DNA of 64,000 nucleotides, taken from Lysobacteraceae bacterium (GTDB lineage Bacteria; Pseudomonadota; Gammaproteobacteria; Xanthomonadales; Xanthomonadaceae). The stretch spans positions 91,674 to 155,673 of the forward strand of contig JAUXUI010000069.1 in assembly GCA_030681035.1 (NCBI GenBank), in the 5' to 3' direction. Shown in pieces: positions 4,854 through 14,392 of this stretch. Position 1 is the stretch's first letter. Each line of letters starts with the position of its first letter. The notes beneath the pieces are model-generated. The model saw only the letters and a program-made list of their open reading frames with translations. It was not told where the DNA came from and made no database searches. A program made the position numbers and the translations under genes.

Positions 4854-7223
4854 ATGAAATTCCCTGAAAGCTGGCTGCGCCAACACGTTGCACACAACGC
4901 CACTGCCGAAGGTCTGGCCGAGCGCCTGACCGCGATTGGCCTGGAGGTGGAGGAGATGCAGCGTCTGGGCGAAGGCCTGGATGGTGTGGTGGTGGCGCGT
5001 ATCGTTTCGTGCTCGCCACATCCGCAAGCCGATCGCCTGCAAGTGTGTTCGGTCGATGCCGGCGGTTCCTCGCCGGTACAGATCGTCTGCGGTGCGCCCA
5101 ATGCGCGTCCCGGGCTGGTTGCGCCGCTGGCGGTGGTTGGCGCGAGCCTGCCCGGCGGTATCGCGATCAAGGCGGCCACGCTGCGCGGTGTTGAATCACA
5201 GGGGATGCTGTGCTCGGCGCGCGAGTTGGGCCTGGATACCGATGCTGCAGGCTTGATGGAACTGCCTGCCGATGCGCCGGTGGGGCAATCGCTGATGGAT
5301 TATCTGGGTTTGCCCGATACCAGCTATGAGATCAAGCTCACGCCGAACCGAGCTGATTGTTTCGGCATCCGCGGAATCGCCTATGACGTGGCCGCAGCCA
5401 CCGGTGCCGAGGTGCTGCCGTTTGTGGTCGAGCCGCTGGTTGCGGCGATTGAAGATGGGGTTGCGGTACAACTGGATGCCGGTGTCGCATGCCCACGCTA
5501 CTGCGGCCGGGTGATCTGCGGGATCGATCCTGATGTTGTCACCCCATTATGGATGCGCGAGCGGCTGCGGCGCTCGGGCGTGCGCCCGATCAGTTTTCTG
5601 GTCGATGTAACCCAGTACGTGATGCTGGATCTGGGCCAGCCGATGCATGCGTTTGATCGTGATCTTTTGAAGGGGCCGGTTGGCGTGCGTCTGGCGCGAT
5701 CCGGCGAAAGCCTGAAACTGCTCGACGAGCGCACGGTTGCTCTGGACGATGGCTTTGTGGTGATTACCGATGCCCAGCGCCCGGTTGCGCTGGCCGGGGT
5801 AATGGGCGGTTGGGATACCCGCGTCACCGAAGCCACTCGCAACGTGTTTCTGGAAAGCGCGCATTTCGCGCCCGATGCGATTATTGGCCGGGCGCGCCGC
5901 CTTGGCATGCACACCGATGCCTCGCATCGTTTCGAGCGCGGCGTCGATCCGGAATTGCCACGTCAGGCGCTCGAATACGCCACCCGTCTGATCCTCGATA
6001 TTGCCGGCGGCAAACCCGGCGCGGTGACCGAAGCGAGCGTGGCTGATGCGTTGCACGTTGCGCGCCCGGTTTCGCTGCGCCGAGCGCGTTTGCAGCGAGT
6101 GCTGGGTATCACCGTGAGTGATGGCGAGATCGAGCGAATCCTGCGCGCGCTTGGCATGGTGGTTGAGGCTACTGCTGATGGCTGGTCGGTGCTGCCGCCG
6201 AGCCGTCGTTTTGATATCGCCATCGAAGAAGACCTGATCGAAGAAGTCGTGCGCATTCATGGCTACGAGGCAGTGCCGACGACGCTGCCCAGCGGCAGTT
6301 TTCCGTTGCTGGTGCCGAGCGAGACCCGCGTTGCCGATGGTGAACTGCGCCGGCAACTGCTGGCACGGGATTATGCCGAGGCGGTGTGTTTTTCCTTTCT
6401 TGACGCGCAAACGCTGGCGCACTGGCAGCTCGATCATGGTGCGGTAACACTGGCCAACCCTTTGAGCGAAGAACTGGCGGTGATGCGCACAGCATTGTTG
6501 CCGGGTCTGGTGCAGGCGCTGGCGCGCAATCGTGACCGTCAACTGAGCCGGGTACGGCTGTTTGAGCTGGGCCGCGTGTTTCACACGGATGGTGTGGGCG
6601 AAACCCGTCGCATCGCGGCGGTGGCTTGCGGCACTGCCCACGCCGAGCAATGGGGCGTTGCCGAGCGTGAGCTTGAGTTCCATGACATCAAGGGTGATCT
6701 GGAGAGCCTGCTGGCACTGGCTGGCCCGCTCAACGTGCAATGGACGGGCGCCGATCTGCCATGGCTGCATCCCGGGCGCTCGGCCAGCGTGAAACGTGGC
6801 GAGCAGGTGCTGGGCTGGATCGGTGCCCTGCATCCGGCACTGCTGCGCGCGCTGGACCTGGATAGCGAGGTATGGGTGTTCGAAATGGACCTCGATGTGA
6901 TCGCACAGCGTGAGCTGGCGCGGGCCCGGCCACTGTCGCGGTTCCCGTCGGTACGTCGTGATCTGGCCGTGGTGGTGGCCGAAGCCACGCCGTGGGCGGC
7001 GGTGGAAGCCAGTGTGCGTGGCAGTCTGGGCGAGCGTCTCAATGCGCTGTCACTGTTTGACCAATATCAGGGGCCTGGGCTGGAATCAGGCACAAAAAGT
7101 CTTGCTATGGGCTTGATTTTGCACGACGTATCGCGCACTCTTACGGATCACGATGCCGACAGCGCTGTGGCTGACGTGGTCGCTGCCTTGGGTAGTGATT
7201 GCGGTGCAAGAATCAGGGGGTGA
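4854..7223 (+). CDS. pheT: Phenylalanyl-tRNA synthetase beta subunit
   Basis: The beta subunit binds tRNA-Phe and edits mischarged tyrosine. The 789-residue protein (family about 790-800) begins [12 protein letters not shown]. Domains in order: tRNA-binding OB fold (about 40-150, with [18 protein letters not shown]), B3/B4 editing domain (about 215-385, including [24 protein letters not shown]), B5 (about 405-475), inactive class II core ([18 protein letters not shown] onward), and the C-terminal FDX-ACB domain ([15 protein letters not shown]). It is transcribed in the same direction as pheS and ends one base before ihfA begins, indicating co-transcription with ihfA. Confidence 0.97.
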
Positions 7224-7224
7224 C

Positions 7225-7527
7225 ATGGCGTTGACCAAAGCAGAGATGGCAGAGCGGTTGTTTGAGCAGGTTGGCCTGAACAAGCGAGAAGCCAAAGAGT
7301 TCGTGGACGCGTTTTTCGACGCGTTGCGCGGCGCGTTGGAGCGTGGCCAGCAAGTCAAATTGTCGGGTTTCGGCAACTTCGACCTGCGCAGCAAGAACCA
7401 GCGCCCGGGGCGAAATCCCAAAACCGGTGAAGAGATTCCGATTTCAGCCAGAACGGTGGTGACCTTTCGCCCCGGTCAAAAGCTGAAGGAGCGCGTGGAA
7501 GCTTATTCCGGGAACGGGCGTGCTTGA
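7225..7527 (+). CDS. ihfA: Integration host factor alpha subunit
   Basis: IHF-alpha pairs with IHF-beta to bend DNA at specific sites in replication, recombination and transcription. The start chosen is ATG at 7225 ([20 protein letters not shown]), one base after the pheT stop and preceded by a GGGGG stretch inside pheT; this gives the standard length of 100 residues. The [29 protein letters not shown] segment is the DNA-binding arm of the HU/IHF family. It overlaps the following MerR-type gene by 8 bases. The pheT-ihfA order is widely conserved in gammaproteobacteria. Confidence 0.97.
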
Positions 7528-7876
7528 TCCGGGCAGTAATCGCGAACTGCCGCCGATTCCGGCCAAGCGCTACTTCACCATTGGTGAGGTCAGCGAGCTG
7601 TGCGACGTAAAACCGCATGTGCTGCGTTACTGGGAAACCGAGTTCGGCAATCTCAATCCGGTCAAGCGCCGCGGCAACCGGCGTTATTACCAACGCCACG
7701 ATGTGCTGATGATTCGCCAGATCCGCGCGTTGTTGTATGAAGAGGGCTACACCATCGGCGGTGCCCGTCAGCGGCTGGAAGGCGAGGCCGGGCGCAACGA
7801 GTCGAGCATGAGCGCGCAGGTGATACGCGAGGTGCGGCGCGAGCTGGAAGAAGTGTTGTTGTTGCTGCGGCGCTGA
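7520..7876 (+). CDS. MerR-family transcriptional regulator downstream of ihfA
   Basis: A 118-residue protein with GTG start overlapping the ihfA end by 8 bases. Residues about 17-85 form a winged helix-turn-helix of MerR type ([26 protein letters not shown], then [37 protein letters not shown]), followed by a short leucine-rich helix probably used for dimerisation. There is no C-terminal effector domain or metal-binding cysteine cluster. This short MerR protein between ihfA and tRNA-Pro is a conserved gammaproteobacterial arrangement, but its targets are not established. Regulation of its own operon is possible but not shown. Confidence 0.9.
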
Positions 7877-7959
7877 TCGCACGACGATCATCGTTTCAGG
7901 GCACTGTAGGGAACCTCGACGCAAGCATCGCATAATAGGTTTCAAGTGCTCACTCCGGG

Positions 7960-7965
7960 TATACT
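7960..7965 (+). promoter_or_regulatory. Probable -10 element of the tRNA-Pro gene
   Basis: TATACT at 7960-7965 is followed by the GC-rich stretch CGGCCGGGCGGC, as expected of a stringently controlled stable-RNA promoter. No good -35 hexamer is found 16-18 bases upstream. The tRNA starts 42 bases after the hexamer. Confidence 0.5.
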
Positions 7966-8007
7966 AATCGGCCGGGCGGCAAGCCCGGGTGTTAAAGCAA
8001 CACATGT

Positions 8008-8084
8008 CGGGGCGTAGCGCAGCCTGGTAGCGCATCTGCCTGGGGGGCAGAGGGTCGTGGGTTCAAATCCCGCCGCCCCGACCA
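8008..8084 (+). tRNA. tRNA-Pro (anticodon GGG)
   Basis: A complete cloverleaf of 77 nt with encoded CCA. Acceptor stem CGGGGCG (8008-8014) pairs with CGCCCCG (8074-8080), A discriminator, CCA at 8082-8084. The anticodon arm is TCTGC-CTGGGGG-GCAGA, placing GGG at 8042-8044, which reads CCC (and CCU) proline codons. The T-arm contains GGTTCAAATCC. It follows the ihfA-merR genes, a conserved position. No duplicated 3' end or integrase was seen that would mark it as an active integration site. Confidence 0.97.
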
Positions 8085-8200
8085 TTTACCGCGACACCGC
8101 GACATCGCGCCATGCGGTCATCGATTCGCGACGCCACTTCACCGCAAGTCATTCACGCCGCCTTGTTACACTGTGCGCTGGTGACCAGTGGGCAAGTCTC

Positions 8201-9145
8201 ATGCACATGCTTTATCCCGATATCGACGCGTTTGACCACGGCATGCTGCCGGTTGATGCCCGGCATACGCTGAATTACGAACAATGCGGGAACCCCAACG
8301 GCAAGCCGGTGGTGATCCTGCACGGCGGGCCGGGTGGCGGCTGCAACGCCAAAATGCGGCGCTTCCATGACCCCAAGGTCTACCGCATCATCCTGTTCGA
8401 TCAGCGCGGCGCCGGGCGCTCCACCCCGCATGCTGATCTGGTTGACAACACCACCTGGCATCTGGTGGCGGACATCGAAGCCCTGCGCAGCCATCTTGGC
8501 ATAGCGCGCTGGCAGGTGTTTGGCGGTTCCTGGGGCTCCACTCTGGCGCTGGCTTATGCGCAAACCCATCCACAGCGGGTGAGTGAACTGGTATTGCGCG
8601 GCATCTTCATGTTGCGACGCTGGGAACTGGAATGGTTCTACCAGGAGGGAGCTTCGCGCCTGTTCCCGGAGGCGTGGCAGCAGTACTTGAGTGCAATCCC
8701 GCTGGTCGAGCGCCATGACCTGATATCGGCCTACCATCGCCGCTTGACCAGTGATGACGCCGATACCCGGCTCGCAGCAGCGCGCGCGTGGTCGGTGTGG
8801 GAAGCGGCGACCAGCCTGTTGCATCCAGACCCGGCCTTCATCGGCGCGCATGAAGACCCCGCATTCGCGCTGGCATTCGCCCGTATCGAATGCCATTACT
8901 TCGTCAACGGTGGCTTCTTCGAGGTCGATGACCAGTTGTTGCGCGATGCCGACCGGCTGCGCGAGATACCCGGCGTAATCGTACACGGCCGTTACGATGT
9001 CGTGTGCCCGGTCACCAACGCCTGGGATCTGCATCAGGCGTGGCCCAAAGCCGATCTGGAAATCTGCGGAAGTTCAGGGCATTCCGCGTTTGAACCGGAA
9101 ATCGCCAGCGCGCTGGTGCGTACCACCGACCGCTTTCGGACGTGA
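8201..9145 (+). CDS. pip: Proline iminopeptidase (prolyl aminopeptidase)
   Basis: Alpha/beta-hydrolase of peptidase family S33 that releases N-terminal proline from peptides, probably in the cytoplasm since no signal peptide is seen. With ATG 8201 (MHMLYPDIDAFDHGML) it has 314 residues; ATG 8207 is equally possible and two residues shorter. Motifs: HGGPGGG oxyanion region (about residue 44), LFDQRGAGRS, the GGSWGST nucleophile elbow with catalytic Ser, HGRYDVVCP with the catalytic Asp, and GSSGHSAFEPE with the catalytic His. The frame is open further upstream, but that part has no family resemblance. It is monocistronic, between tRNA-Pro and the restriction-modification remnant. Confidence 0.93.
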   Translation: MHMLYPDIDAFDHGMLPVDARHTLNYEQCGNPNGKPVVILHGGPGGGCNAKMRRFHDPKVYRIILFDQRGAGRSTPHADLVDNTTWHLVADIEALRSHLGIARWQVFGGSWGSTLALAYAQTHPQRVSELVLRGIFMLRRWELEWFYQEGASRLFPEAWQQYLSAIPLVERHDLISAYHRRLTSDDADTRLAAARAWSVWEAATSLLHPDPAFIGAHEDPAFALAFARIECHYFVNGGFFEVDDQLLRDADRLREIPGVIVHGRYDVVCPVTNAWDLHQAWPKADLEICGSSGHSAFEPEIASALVRTTDRFRT

Positions 9146-9390
9146 TATGTGATGACTTTACGCGGAGAAGTGTCGGCCGCGCTGATCTGCACAATGGCGG
9201 CGGCAGATCACCTGCATCGCGGTCAGTTGCGTTTCAATCTGCACGTCATAGCGTTTGGATGGATGACGTGGAACAATGCGGGAGCCTCTTGAAACCATAG
9301 CGCTCGTTGCTGTGCTATTCAGTCACTACCCGCAACGTTGGTTGAGTGGTGAAGGTGATAGCGGGAATGCCGAAGAACGGATGGGATCAC

Positions 9391-10060
9391 ATGCCTAAGT
9401 GGGTCAATGCGGATAAACCGCACCTCTGGAAGTCCGATATCGCCGCCTCGGTTGACCAGTTCAATCAGTGGTTTATGCGTTTTGCGCCGGACGCGTTTCG
9501 CTCTACCCGTGTCAACACCAGCGCCGATGTCTGTGCCGCGCTGCGGGCAACCAATGACTTGCGCAATATCGGCGTGGTGACGCTGAAGCACAATCCGGCG
9601 TGCTATCCACGCTCCGCATGTGTACTGCTCTACCGCTGGCGGTGGACCGTTTGATTGGCTCGACGCCAGAGGCTATCGCAAGCAAGCACATCCCAACGGA
9701 ACGCCGCTGAAGGATATGGTTGCCGCGACGTACGCCTTCCGCATGAACCTGGCGGTCGGCAAGACGATGAAGGTGAACATCCCCGTGGACGTGGTGATCC
9801 AGCCCAGGAGGCTCCGCAAGGATCGGCTGCCCATTCTTGTCGAAGCCAAGTCAGCGGGAGATTTCACCAACACCAACAAGCGACGCAAAGAAGAGGCAAC
9901 CAAGATTCATCAACTCCAGGCGGCGTACGGCAAAACTGTGCCGTTCGTGCTCTTTTTGTGTGGTTACTTTGGCAGTGACTACTTGGGCTACGAAGCCGCC
10001 GAGGGCATTGACTGGGTCTGGGAACATCGTATCGACGACCTCGCGAGACTTGGACTGTAA
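9391..10060 (+). pseudogene. Decayed XamI-family type II restriction endonuclease
   Basis: Pieces of a XamI-like nuclease lie in three frames. The N-terminal part (MPKWVNADKPHLWKSDIAAS ... LRNIGVVTLKHNPA, 9391 to about 9599) loses frame at about 9597-9600. The next frame continues the family sequence from GTG 9600 as VLSTLRMCTALPLAVDRLIG. At about 9650-9660 this joins a third frame, WLDARGYR ... YAFRMNLAVGKTMKVNIPVD ... LVEAKSAGDFTNTNKRRKEE, running to 10060. So there is a one-base frameshift plus a deletion of the middle of the protein, by memory of the family about 110 or more residues. The EAKSAGDF segment, probably part of the active site, survives. The intact cognate-type methyltransferase starts 5 bases downstream. 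XamI from Xanthomonas cuts GTCGAC; the specificity here is inferred only. Confidence 0.85.
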
Positions 10061-10065
10061 TTCGC

Positions 10066-11661
10066 ATGTCTGCTTTCGAATGCCAGTTGGCCGAGTCACA
10101 ACGACAAGCCGTTCAAGCGGAGATCGATGCGCGCAAGTCGGCAAAGGAGCGAAATCGCCTTGGCCAATTCGCAACGCCCTATGCCCTTGCCGTCGAGATC
10201 GCCCATTACGTCGAATCCATCCTCGGCCAGCCCAACCAGCGCGTTCGTTTCGCCGATCCTTCCATCGGTTCGGGCAGTTTCTTTTCGGCAGCGCTTACTG
10301 TCTTCGGCTGCAAGCGAATCAGCAGCGCTATTGGGGTCGAGATCGACCCCGAATTTGCTGGCGCTGTTCATTGTTTGTGGAGCAATGCCGGGCTTGAGGT
10401 TGTCCACGGCGATTTTACTCGAGTCATTGCCAATGGCTCATGCCCACTTGCGCCCAACGTTGTTTTGGCGAACCCGCCTTACGTCCGGCACCATCACATG
10501 AGCCGTGAAGAGAAGGCACGTCTCCAGGCGTTGACGTTCAAGATGGTTGGAATTGACGTCAACGGGCTTGCAGGTCTTTACGTTTATTTTTTGCTGCTGG
10601 CGACGGCGTGGATGGAGGACGGTGGGGTTGCAGCATGGCTGGTTCCATCGGAGTTCATGGACGTCAACTACGGGGCTGCCCTCAAGCGTTTCCTTGCAGA
10701 TCGCGTGACATTGATTCGGGTGCATCGTTTTGACCCCAACGACGTTCAATTTGGCGACGCGCTGGTGTCGTCGGTCGTTCTGGTGTTTCGCAAGGCACCG
10801 CCCTCAGCGGATCATGAAGTTTTGTTCACCTTTGGCGGATCTCTAGCCGAACCGCGTGCAAGCGACCTCATTGCGCGCGAACGATTGCGTGAGGCTCGCA
10901 AGTGGACCGCATACCCAAATCATCTGAATAATGACCGGCATGCGGTTGCACTGGGCACTGGCCCGACGCTGGGCGATTTTTTTCGTGTTCAGCGCGGAAT
11001 TGCTACCGGTTGCAACAAGTTTTTCATACTCGAACGCGAGGTCGCTGCGAGGCTCGGACTTCCTGACAAATATCTTCGCCCCATCCTTCCCAGTCCGCGC
11101 CAGCTGAAAATCACGAAGATAGACGCTGACGCGGATGGCCACCCGCTGATCGACTCCCAGTTGTGCGTAGTTGACTGCAACTTGCCTGAGCCAATGGTTG
11201 CGGCCAACTATCCAGCCCTTTGGGCATACTTGCAAACCGCGCAGTCGCTCGGTGTCATGAGTGGCTATCTGATTGGCAAGCGCAGTCCTTGGTACAAGCA
11301 GGAACAGCGCGAGCCGAGTGATTTTTTGTGTACCTACATGGGGCGTGGCTCAGGCGATCAACCACCATTCCGGTTCATCTGGAACCGGTCAAAGGCAATT
11401 GCAACCAATCTGTATCTGATGCTCTACCCCAAGCCCAACCTCGCAGCGATGCTTCGGTGCTATCCGGAGCGCGCCGAGATTGTCCACACCTTGCTTGGGC
11501 AGGTCACTGGGAACGAACTTCGCGGCGAAGGCCGGGTATACGGTGGTGGCTTGAACAAAATCGAGCCGAGTGAACTGGCACGCATTTGTGCCGCATCATT
11601 TGTCGAACGTTGGCCGGAGATCAGAGGTGGCGGAGATGTTCAGGGCAAGTTGTTCGGCTAA
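10066..11661 (+). CDS. Type II N6-adenine DNA methyltransferase (XamI-type), orphaned
   Basis: A 531-residue gamma-class adenine methyltransferase. After a short N-terminal helix with RLGQFATPYALA (the X motif of this class), motif I is FADPSIGSGSF (about 63-72) and the catalytic motif IV is NPPY (136-139). A C-terminal target-recognition region follows (about 290-500). It methylates adenine in a double-stranded site; by its pairing with a XamI-like nuclease the site may be GTCGAC. The partner nuclease immediately upstream is broken, so this is an orphan modification enzyme with no self-protection role left. The gene looks somewhat less GC-rich than its neighbours, and the pair sits between the housekeeping genes pip and dnaB, which suggests acquisition by transfer. 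Confidence 0.92.
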   Translation: MSAFECQLAESQRQAVQAEIDARKSAKERNRLGQFATPYALAVEIAHYVESILGQPNQRVRFADPSIGSGSFFSAALTVFGCKRISSAIGVEIDPEFAGAVHCLWSNAGLEVVHGDFTRVIANGSCPLAPNVVLANPPYVRHHHMSREEKARLQALTFKMVGIDVNGLAGLYVYFLLLATAWMEDGGVAAWLVPSEFMDVNYGAALKRFLADRVTLIRVHRFDPNDVQFGDALVSSVVLVFRKAPPSADHEVLFTFGGSLAEPRASDLIARERLREARKWTAYPNHLNNDRHAVALGTGPTLGDFFRVQRGIATGCNKFFILEREVAARLGLPDKYLRPILPSPRQLKITKIDADADGHPLIDSQLCVVDCNLPEPMVAANYPALWAYLQTAQSLGVMSGYLIGKRSPWYKQEQREPSDFLCTYMGRGSGDQPPFRFIWNRSKAIATNLYLMLYPKPNLAAMLRCYPERAEIVHTLLGQVTGNELRGEGRVYGGGLNKIEPSELARICAASFVERWPEIRGGGDVQGKLFG

Positions 11662-11843
11662 GAAGTAGCTGCGAACGAGTTGATGTCAAGGATTGACCTT
11701 ACGCTGGTAGAACGCTTCCCTTGCCATGTGACGCAGTTCACGCAAGCACAACGGCATGGCCAAGGCAACACCGTCGCGCGCGGTGCGCCGGCTGCTGCCG
11801 CTGAGCCTGTATCATTTGCTGCCTGCTGATCGATCAAAAGCCC

Positions 11844-13229
11844 ATGTCCGCATTCCCTGACAACCGTAATGAACCGCGCATGGATGACTTGCGACTGCCG
11901 CCACAGGCGGTGGAGGCCGAGCAGGCGGTGCTGGGCGGTCTGATGCTGGCGCCTGACGCGCTGGATCGGGTTGCCGATGTGCTGGTCGAGGAGGATTTCT
12001 ATCGCCGCGATCATCGGGCGATTTTCCGCGCCGTGCGCGAGCTGGCATCCAAGAACAGCCCGTTTGACGCGATTACCCTGGGTGAATGGCTGGAAGCCAA
12101 CCAACTTGCGGAACAGGCCGGTGGCACCGCGTACTTGATCGAGCTGGCCAGCACCACGCCCTCGGCGGCGAATATTGCCGCGTATGCCGCGATCGTGCGT
12201 GAAAAGGCGATCATGCGGCAGTTGATCGATGCCGGCTCGAAGATCGTTGACAGTGCGTTTCAGCCGGCCGGCCGTGACAGCCAGGAAGTGCTGGCGCAGG
12301 CCGAGCAGGCGGTGTTCCGCATTGCCGAGCATGGCCGTCGTGGGCGGCAGGATTATGTGGCGCTGCGCGACGCCATGCGCGAAGCCTTCACGGTGTTGCA
12401 GGCGCGCTACGAAAACCAGTCCGATGTCACCGGTGTGCCGACCGGCTACACCGAGTTCGATCTGATCACGGCCGGCTTGCAGCCTTCGGATCTGCTGATT
12501 CTGGCGGCGCGCCCGGCGATGGGCAAAACCAGTCTGGCGTTGAATATTGCCGAATACGCGGCGCTGAAAACGCGCAAGGCCTGCGTGGTGTTTTCGATGG
12601 AAATGTCGGCGCCGCAGTTGGCGTTCCGCCTGATTTCCTCGATCGGCCGAATCAACCAGCAGCGGCTGCGTACCGGGCAACTGGAAGACGAGGACTGGAG
12701 CCGGGTCAATCATGCGATCCGGATGCTGTCGGAAGCCAAGATGTTCATCGACGACACCCCGGCGCTGTCGCCCGATGTGCTGCGCTCCAAGGCGCGGCGG
12801 CTCAAGCGCGAGCATGATCTGGGCCTGATCGTGATCGACTACCTGCAATTGATGCAGGTGCCGGGCAACAAGGAAAACCGCGCCACCGAGATTTCCGAGA
12901 TTTCGCGCAGCCTCAAGGCGCTGGCCAAGGAACTCAATGTGCCGGTGATCGCGCTGTCGCAGCTCAATCGCGGCCTTGAAACCCGCACCGACAAACGGCC
13001 GGTGATGGCGGATCTGCGCGAGTCGGGCGCGATCGAGCAGGACGCCGATCTGATCGTGTTCATTTACCGCGACGATTACTACAACCAGGATTCGCAGGAC
13101 AAAGGGCTGGCTGAAATCATTATCGGCAAGCACCGTAACGGCCCAACTGGCACGGTCAAGCTGCGCTTTTTCGGCGAATACACCCGCTTCGACAATCTGG
13201 CCCACGACAGTGTCGGCCGGATGGAGTAG
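11844..13229 (+). CDS. dnaB: Replicative DNA helicase
   Basis: Hexameric helicase that unwinds DNA at the replication fork. ATG 11844 gives 461 residues, close to E. coli DnaB. The N-terminal primase-interaction domain (PPQAVEAEQAVLGGLML ... to about 175) is joined by a linker to the RecA-like ATPase with Walker A ARPAMGKTSLALN (about residues 226-238), Walker B LIVIDYLQLM and the DNA-binding DLRESGAIEQDAD loop. No intein is present. The next gene, alr, starts 86 bases downstream, the same pairing as in other gammaproteobacteria. Confidence 0.98.
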   Translation: MSAFPDNRNEPRMDDLRLPPQAVEAEQAVLGGLMLAPDALDRVADVLVEEDFYRRDHRAIFRAVRELASKNSPFDAITLGEWLEANQLAEQAGGTAYLIELASTTPSAANIAAYAAIVREKAIMRQLIDAGSKIVDSAFQPAGRDSQEVLAQAEQAVFRIAEHGRRGRQDYVALRDAMREAFTVLQARYENQSDVTGVPTGYTEFDLITAGLQPSDLLILAARPAMGKTSLALNIAEYAALKTRKACVVFSMEMSAPQLAFRLISSIGRINQQRLRTGQLEDEDWSRVNHAIRMLSEAKMFIDDTPALSPDVLRSKARRLKREHDLGLIVIDYLQLMQVPGNKENRATEISEISRSLKALAKELNVPVIALSQLNRGLETRTDKRPVMADLRESGAIEQDADLIVFIYRDDYYNQDSQDKGLAEIIIGKHRNGPTGTVKLRFFGEYTRFDNLAHDSVGRME

Positions 13230-13315
13230 GTGCCCGCAAATCGCCACAATTTGGCCGCGCCAGGCCTGTTGCAGCGGCGATGCTATCACCTGAATGTTTC
13301 GAGTCTGATCTGCCC

Positions 13316-14392
13316 ATGAGCCGCCCAACCTGCGCCCACATCGACCTGGATGCCCTGCGCCATAATCTGGCCGCAGTGCGTTTGCGCGCGCCGGCGTCAC
13401 GGGTGATGGCGGTGGTCAAGGCCGATGGTTACGGCCACGGCCTGGAGCGTGTTGCGAAGGCGCTGGCGGGTGCCGATGCGTTTGGTGTGGCGGCACTGGC
13501 TGACGCCCAGCGTTTGCGCGCAGCCGGTCTGACGCAACGCATTGTGCTGCTTTCGGGTTTCGATGAACCGGCCGACCTGCCGTTGCTGCGGCAGTTGGCG
13601 GTCGATACCGTGATTCACCATCCGGCCCAGCTCGCCATGCTCGATGCACTCGATGCCGGCACGCCGATCCGCTGCTGGCTCAAGCTCGACACCGGGATGC
13701 ACCGGCTCGGTATTCCGGCTGCGGATGGCGCGTTGGTGGCTGCGCGGTTGCGTGCGATGCCAGCGGTTGACCCCGAACTGGTGCTGATGAGTCATTTTTC
13801 GCGTTCCGATGAGTTCGGCGACGCTGCCACCGCGGCGCAGATCGCCTGTTTCGAATCGGCTTGCCAGGGTATTTCCGGCGCACGGTCGCTGGCCAACTCC
13901 GCTGCGGTGCTCGGCTGGCCCGCAGCGCATGCCGACTGGGTGCGGCCGGGCGGGGCCTTGTACGGCATTTCGGTGGTGGACGGGCGCACCGGCGCGGATT
14001 TCGGCCTGCGCTCGGCGATGCGGCTATGCACCCGCTTGATTGCCGTGAACCAGGTGCGCGCCGGCGAGCCGGTCGGTTACGGTGCTCGCTTTGTCTGCCC
14101 CGAGGACATGGCGGTGGGTGTTGCCGCCATCGGTTATGGCGATGGCTACCCGCGCCATGTGCCATCGGGTACACCGGTGCTGGTCAATGGCCGGCGCGTG
14201 CCATTGATCGGAAGGGTATCGATGGATCTGATGACGCTCGATCTGCGCAGCCAGCCCGCTGCGCGGGTGGGTGATCCGGTGCAGTTGTGGGGGGCGGAGT
14301 TGCCAGTCGAAGTGATCGCCGCCGCCGCCGGCACCATAGGATATGAACTGACCTGCTCGATCACCCGGCGGGTGCAGTTTATCGAGGGCTGA
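13316..14392 (+). CDS. alr: Alanine racemase
   Basis: PLP-dependent interconversion of L- and D-alanine, supplying D-Ala for peptidoglycan. The ATG at 13316 (MSRPTCAHIDLDALRHNL) gives 358 residues, as in the family; the open frame reaches further upstream but without homology. The PLP lysine lies in VMAVVKADGYGHG (about residue 34). The second catalytic residue, a tyrosine, is expected in the VGYGARFVCPEDMAVGVAAIGYGDGYPR region, and the C-terminal beta domain carries LIGRVSMDLMTLDL. It follows dnaB in the same direction and may be co-transcribed with it. Confidence 0.96.
   Translation: MSRPTCAHIDLDALRHNLAAVRLRAPASRVMAVVKADGYGHGLERVAKALAGADAFGVAALADAQRLRAAGLTQRIVLLSGFDEPADLPLLRQLAVDTVIHHPAQLAMLDALDAGTPIRCWLKLDTGMHRLGIPAADGALVAARLRAMPAVDPELVLMSHFSRSDEFGDAATAAQIACFESACQGISGARSLANSAAVLGWPAAHADWVRPGGALYGISVVDGRTGADFGLRSAMRLCTRLIAVNQVRAGEPVGYGARFVCPEDMAVGVAAIGYGDGYPRHVPSGTPVLVNGRRVPLIGRVSMDLMTLDLRSQPAARVGDPVQLWGAELPVEVIAAAAGTIGYELTCSITRRVQFIEG

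What the first reader, a model, noticed from the sequence alone, without database searches (positions are those of the whole stretch)
9391..11661. Dead XamI-like restriction nuclease beside an intact methyltransferase
Fragments of one nuclease can be read in three successive frames: an upstream one-base frameshift at about 9597-9600 and an internal deletion joining VDRLIG to WLDARGYR at about 9655. The methyltransferase just downstream is full length with intact motifs. The locus is a snapshot of a restriction-modification system losing restriction and leaving an orphan methylase between pip and dnaB.
Basis: partly seen in the sequence, partly recalled or inferred. Interest (0 to 1): 0.6.

Follow-up and report, generated by a model that had tools for sequence, protein, structure and literature searches.

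The report
Recently broken restriction enzyme, surviving methylase
A bacterial DNA-cutting defence enzyme has lately been knocked out by two small DNA lesions while its protective partner enzyme stays whole; a close relative still has an unbroken pair, so this is a clear but ordinary example of a known kind of decay.

Summary
Window 9391-10060 is a XamI-family (PF09572) restriction endonuclease gene broken by two lesions: one base missing from a G run (9597-9598) and a 286-bp deletion whose ends share the repeat GATTGGCT (now 9653-9660). The adjacent 531-aa N6-adenine methyltransferase (10066-11661) is open and keeps its motifs. A public contig (L018, PHBH01000098.1, probably mis-binned) has the same pip-R-M-dnaB arrangement at 97-98% identity with an uninterrupted endonuclease, so the damage is measured, not guessed. 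The three other genomes held for this genus have pip next to dnaB without the pair. The pair is less diverged between window and L018 than its flanks (fourfold differences 17/399 against 10/41), and the nuclease probably died late: its window-branch substitutions are 4 synonymous, 1 non-synonymous. Among 72 relatives with room upstream, 13 endonucleases and 2 methyltransferases are not intact. GTCGAC specificity and active methylation are untested. Orphan methylases beside degraded endonucleases are described in print, so this is a new member of a known kind.

The parts
9391..9597 (+). N-terminal piece of the XamI-family endonuclease (codons 1-69 in the correct frame); the open frame runs on out of register to a stop at 9652-9654
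9597..9598 (+). first lesion: GG where L018 has GGG, a one-base frameshift
9599..9652 (+). short middle piece (..LSTLRMCTALPLAVDRL..) readable only in the shifted frame; holds the one non-synonymous change of the window branch, at a residue that is Pro in 12 of 12 outgroups with that codon
9653..9660 (+). second lesion: junction of a 286-bp deletion (residues about 89-183 of the endonuclease), at the single remaining copy of the 8-bp repeat GATTGGCT
9653..10060 (+). C-terminal piece of the endonuclease with the predicted catalytic core (D229, E247, K249 in L018 numbering); lies in an open frame of 146 codons that begins at a GTG, 9620
10066..11661 (+). intact 531-aa N6-adenine DNA methyltransferase (Eco57I and N6_Mtase domains; DPSIGSGSF and NPPY motifs, motif names recalled)
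9140..11795 (+). block present here but not between pip and dnaB in the three other genomes of the genus (acquired R-M block)
8057..9145 (+). flanking pip, prolyl aminopeptidase (listed ORF; the true start is probably downstream of 8084, since a tRNA-Pro overlaps the listed start and the family match begins at residue 57)
11844..13229 (+). flanking dnaB

Best explanation
A XamI-type restriction-modification pair was acquired between pip and dnaB. In this lineage the nuclease gene then suffered a one-base loss in a G run and a 286-bp deletion between 8-bp direct repeats (replication slippage or short-homology recombination), in unknown order; by reading frame either alone removes a full-length nuclease. 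The methyltransferase just downstream was spared and presumably still methylates its site, now as an orphan. Loss of the nuclease before the methylase is the tolerated order, since the reverse would expose the chromosome. Shown: both lesions, the uninterrupted sister allele, R-M-free pip-dnaB junctions in three same-genus genomes, low divergence of the block, open methyltransferase. Inferred: loss of cutting, persistence of methylation, target GTCGAC (recalled for XamI), mechanism of the deletion.
For: Family matches of both pieces; uninterrupted allele L018, 333-codon ORF, RE_XamI match over profile 1-256 of 256 at 4.6e-98; lesions read against it. The 21 endonucleases picked for alignment (picked as uninterrupted) have matching sequence across both lesion sites; by that alignment 32 of 89 invariant residues are deleted (22) or out of frame (10) here. 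Siblings G002, G001 and G003 have 149, 21 and 258 unmatched bases between the pip and dnaB matches, against 2631-2656 here, and no PF09572 match (0 of 3 siblings). Methyltransferase changes between window and L018: 17 synonymous, 5 non-synonymous against 73% non-synonymous expected at random, p 1e-6; window branch 6 and 2, p 0.006.
Against: No reads, expression or methylome. The methyltransferase's window-branch change R102H falls at a residue that is Arg in 12 of 13 outgroups, so loss of its activity is not excluded. The substitutions that show constraint may pre-date the nuclease's death, so they do not prove that the orphan is under selection now. L018's organism is known only from its short flanks (171 and 68 coding bases). 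The GTCGAC count does not support or refute.
Confidence: 0.92

Rival explanations
1. Assembly or consensus error: the organism has an intact endonuclease and one or both lesions are artefacts.
For: Draft assembly in 144 contigs; a one-base loss in a G run is a typical consensus error; two methyltransferases among 72 relatives carry stops beside an uninterrupted endonuclease, which suggests that some single lesions in such draft genomes are errors.
Against: A 286-bp deletion with an 8-bp repeat at its ends is a usual biological deletion and too long for a base-calling error; two separate lesions would have to be wrong; a non-synonymous change at a conserved Pro lies between them.
Confidence: 0.05
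2. The C-terminal piece is not debris but still makes a small protein (from GTG 9620 or ATG 9716) holding the catalytic core, with some function of its own.
For: The open frame of 146 codons keeps D229, E247 and K249 and 42 of 89 invariant residues; in the predicted fold the deletion ends near the border between the helical part (10-188) and the beta core (209-318), and several small nuclease chains align within about 174-318; its differences from L018 are 7 synonymous, 1 non-synonymous, that one on the L018 branch; relatives L095 (18 N-terminal residues joined in frame to 174-319) and L064 (120-318) also keep the C-terminal part.
Against: No convincing start was found; a recent death explains the same substitution counts; parts next to the methyltransferase start may persist only because deletions reaching it are not tolerated; the commoner state among non-intact relatives is a stop or frameshift (8 of 13).
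Confidence: 0.03

Closest known systems
XamI-family type II R-M systems (PF09572 endonuclease with an adjacent N6-adenine methylase)
   Same: Both proteins, order R then M with 5 bases between the genes in window and L018, full family match in the sister allele; the same order is annotated on a Corynebacterium glutamicum plasmid
   Different: The endonuclease here is broken; the recognition site of this pair is not known
Orphan methyltransferases beside degraded endonuclease genes (Seshasayee et al., as told in passages of PMC6471742)
   Same: Intact methylase next to a relic nuclease; horizontally acquired
   Different: Here an uninterrupted allele and R-M-free sites in the same genus are also at hand, so acquisition and death can be ordered
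Modification methylase BseCI (PDB 7qw5), nearest solved structure of the methylase by sequence
   Same: Profile match at E 7.3e-21
   Different: The match covers profile positions 28-245 of 529 only

Membership tests
XamI-type R-M system (functional) | PF09572 endonuclease domain | tested here: met
   C piece 5.4e-47, profile 131-256 of 256; sister allele L018 complete, 1-256
XamI-type R-M system (functional) | uninterrupted endonuclease gene | tested here: not met
   frameshift and 286-bp deletion
XamI-type R-M system (functional) | adjacent adenine methyltransferase (type II model PDLC03328) | tested here: met
   E 1.3e-158, residues 5-513
XamI-type R-M system (functional) | recognition of GTCGAC (recalled for XamI) | not testable with these tools
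   GTCGAC is under-represented in the window genome sample (O/E 0.39) but also in two siblings without the system (0.29, 0.45), so the count does not decide
Orphan methyltransferase from R-M decay | intact methyltransferase with catalytic motifs | tested here: met
   531 aa open; DPSIGSGSF and NPPY present, the NPPYVRHHH stretch invariant in 21 aligned sequences
Orphan methyltransferase from R-M decay | no second endonuclease of the same family elsewhere in the genome | tested here: met
   one PF09572 match in the genome, this one; cognate endonucleases of other families were not looked for
Orphan methyltransferase from R-M decay | methylation in the cell | not testable with these tools
   needs a long-read methylome

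The most novel reading that the evidence does not exclude
Endonuclease decay in this family may leave a selected remnant: the C-terminal catalytic core kept as a small stand-alone nuclease beside the methylase, reached separately here, in L095 (in-frame deletion, 166-codon ORF) and perhaps in L064 (residues 120-318).
Probability: 0.04. Interest if true: 0.5.

Novelty: new member of a known kind. Interest (0 to 1): 0.22.

Why it matters
It is a tidy worked case of how a restriction-modification pair is gained, loses its nuclease first and leaves a methylase: R-M-free site, uninterrupted allele and broken allele are all at hand for one genus. That allows the steps to be ordered, which a single genome does not. 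It does not change the general picture.

Tried and rejected
Site avoidance: GTCGAC O/E 0.39 in 344,569 bases of the window genome (window included), 0.29 in 278,984 of G002 and 0.45 in 295,778 of G003, siblings without the system; rejected as evidence (G001 was not counted). Block boundaries: among the 20 of 26 direct-repeat families shown for 9100-11900, the only pair with one copy near each end is a 12-nt one at 92% (9259 and 11880), taken as chance; an integrase was not searched for. The only tRNA found in 7000-14000 is at 8008-8084, on the far side of pip. Promoter-like and terminator-like sites were near the shuffled expectation (1 against 1.0, 4 against 3.1). A solved relative of the endonuclease by sequence: none below E 0.9 (one match, E 0.96). 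Foldseek gave one match below E 0.001 (1xmx, 7.4e-4, low TM-score); the second look ranked BstEII (Z 11.4) and BsoBI (Z 10.4) first. The tool warns that best Z values of 7 to 8 are common without kinship, so this fits a PD-(D/E)XK nuclease (a class name recalled) and no more. The methylase on mobile elements: relatives at 44-50% on 6 viral contigs and below 60% on 120 of 72,556 plasmid records, 20 listed; no close source found. Papers: searches. Judged from listed titles and abstract beginnings only (one search listed 20 of 822, 15 of 17), none describes this locus; one search found none. One search found two papers, on Xanthomonas albilineans and on a species close to it; one passage of PMC3542200 was read.

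Full report
What is there. Reading 9391-10060 in its three frames gives MPKWVN...LKHNP, then LSTLRMCTALPLAVDRLIG, then WLDARGYR...LARLGL. The C piece matches Pfam RE_XamI (5.4e-47; the N piece has no Pfam match) and both pieces match the PADLOC endonuclease model PDLC03552, at 2-67 and 181-312. Downstream, 10066-11661 encodes an uninterrupted 531-aa adenine methyltransferase (PF07669, PF02384; PDLC03328 at 1.3e-158), with the DPSIGSGSF and NPPY motifs in place (motif roles recalled). Left and right neighbours are prolyl aminopeptidase and DnaB.

The uninterrupted allele. A scan of genome contigs with the methyltransferase (416 relatives, best 80 kept) put first L018, contig PHBH01000098.1, 3230 bp, filed under a deltaproteobacterial MAG. 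Apart from the 286 bp, it aligns over its whole length to window 8969-11911 at 97-98% identity, including parts of pip and dnaB, and carries an endonuclease of 333 codons (318 from the inner ATG) without interruption. That protein matches RE_XamI over the complete profile. Relative to it the window lacks one base of a GGG run and 286 bp; the ends of the missing stretch share GATTGGCT. The two losses together do not restore the frame. Of 89 residues invariant among 21 family members, 15 lie in the N piece, 10 out of frame, 22 in the deletion and 42, with D229, E247 and K249, in the C piece (these three as catalytic is by motif, not tested).

Relatives. Of 199 genomes searched (the window's own among them, most of the rest from the same genus, family or order), 13 have a match to the methyltransferase at E 0.001 or better. 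Apart from the window's own, two come near full length, G060 (51%) and G116 (47%), and both have an uninterrupted endonuclease match upstream.

History of the block. Three other genomes of the genus are held. In all three pip and dnaB are neighbours; 149, 21 and 258 unmatched bases separate the matches in G002, G001 and G003, where the window has 2631-2656. None has a PF09572 match (0 of 3). L018's flanks are nearest to G002's: no difference at 43 fourfold sites, against 10 of 41 between L018 and the window; yet the R-M genes of L018 and the window differ at only 17 of 399 fourfold sites (Fisher p 4e-5 for block against flanks; the flanks are short). L018 and G002 are not identical: one synonymous and one non-synonymous codon differ in the pip flank, and 5 of 110 bases on the dnaB side, none of them in its 68 coding bases. 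The whole dnaB of window and G002 differs at 44 of 243 fourfold sites. So the pair probably came to, or moved between, these lineages after they split, and is present in some members of G002's lineage and not in others. How it moved is not known.

Time of death. Polarised with 13 outgroups, the window branch of the endonuclease shows 4 synonymous and 1 non-synonymous change in 224 surviving codons (74% non-synonymous expected at random; p 0.018), and the L018 branch also 4 and 1. Much of the window branch was therefore probably lived with a working nuclease, or the surviving piece is still constrained; the numbers are small. The methyltransferase has 17 synonymous and 5 non-synonymous changes in all, 6 and 2 of them on the window branch.

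How usual this is. Of 80 loci, 72 hold at least 1 kb upstream of the methyltransferase; 8 with less were dropped (L020, L023, L052, L056, L060, L074, L089, L096). In 59 of the 72 (L018 among them) the endonuclease match reads through in one frame; in 13 it does not: stops in 6 (L040, L043, L058, L063, L069, L081), frameshifts in 2 (L054, L097), truncation in 2 (L064, L095), none found in 3 (L047, L078, L086). Four of the six stops lie near an end of the gene: at codons 12 and 15 of the aligned stretch (L069, L081), where a later start could serve, and within its last 17 to 25 codons (L063, L040). L047 seems to keep a short tail (HRIDDLSKLVLN) of the nuclease in frame before its methylase, resembling the family's end HRIDDLAKLGL. 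In the same 72, two methyltransferases carry internal stops (L035, L083), both beside an uninterrupted endonuclease match, so some single lesions may be sequencing errors. The comparison 13 against 2 (Fisher p 0.005) is biased, because the loci were found by their methyltransferase.

Function. The predicted fold of L018's endonuclease (mean pLDDT 82.4, pTM 0.69) has a helical part, 10-188, and a beta core, 209-318; the second look at solved structures ranks the restriction enzymes BstEII and BsoBI first (Z 11.4 and 10.4), with the tool's caution that middling Z is common. The deletion takes most of the later helical part. The methyltransferase profile matches BseCI methylase, which fits N6-adenine methylation. 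XamI's site GTCGAC is recalled; whether this pair shares it is not known, and word counts do not help.

What is known. PMC6471742 (passages read) reports from Seshasayee et al. that a number of orphan methyltransferases neighbour degraded endonuclease genes, and says, citing Oliveira et al., that the change from R-M methyltransferase to orphan is infrequent. The review PMC12707154 (passages read) describes orphan modifiers in general. This locus is a well-documented further case, not a new kind.

Noticed in passing
L018 (PHBH01000098.1, 1-3230): Contig filed under a deltaproteobacterial MAG, but its pip and dnaB flanks match the window's genus (0 of 43 fourfold differences from G002): probably mis-binned.
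   Followed up: partly
genome samples of G000 (344,569 bases) and G002 (278,984 bases): GTGCAC is very rare (O/E 0.06 in G000, 0.15 in G002; not among the ten lowest in G003): a hint of another restriction system or other avoidance in this genus.
   Followed up: no
L035 1113-2675 and L083 6001-7518: Methyltransferase with internal stops beside an uninterrupted XamI-type endonuclease match, the dangerous order of loss; sequencing error or an inactive nuclease is likely.
   Followed up: partly
L095 3842-4342: In-frame internal deletion leaves an endonuclease ORF of 166 codons with the first 18 residues joined to the catalytic core.
   Followed up: partly
window 8008-8084: tRNA-Pro (GGG) overlaps the mechanically listed GTG start of pip at 8057, so pip probably starts further downstream.
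   Followed up: partly
L109 (G003), spacer between pip and dnaB: A stretch of 59 bases matches itself exactly at a spacing of 52, so a 52-bp unit is repeated in tandem in this sibling's spacer.
   Followed up: no
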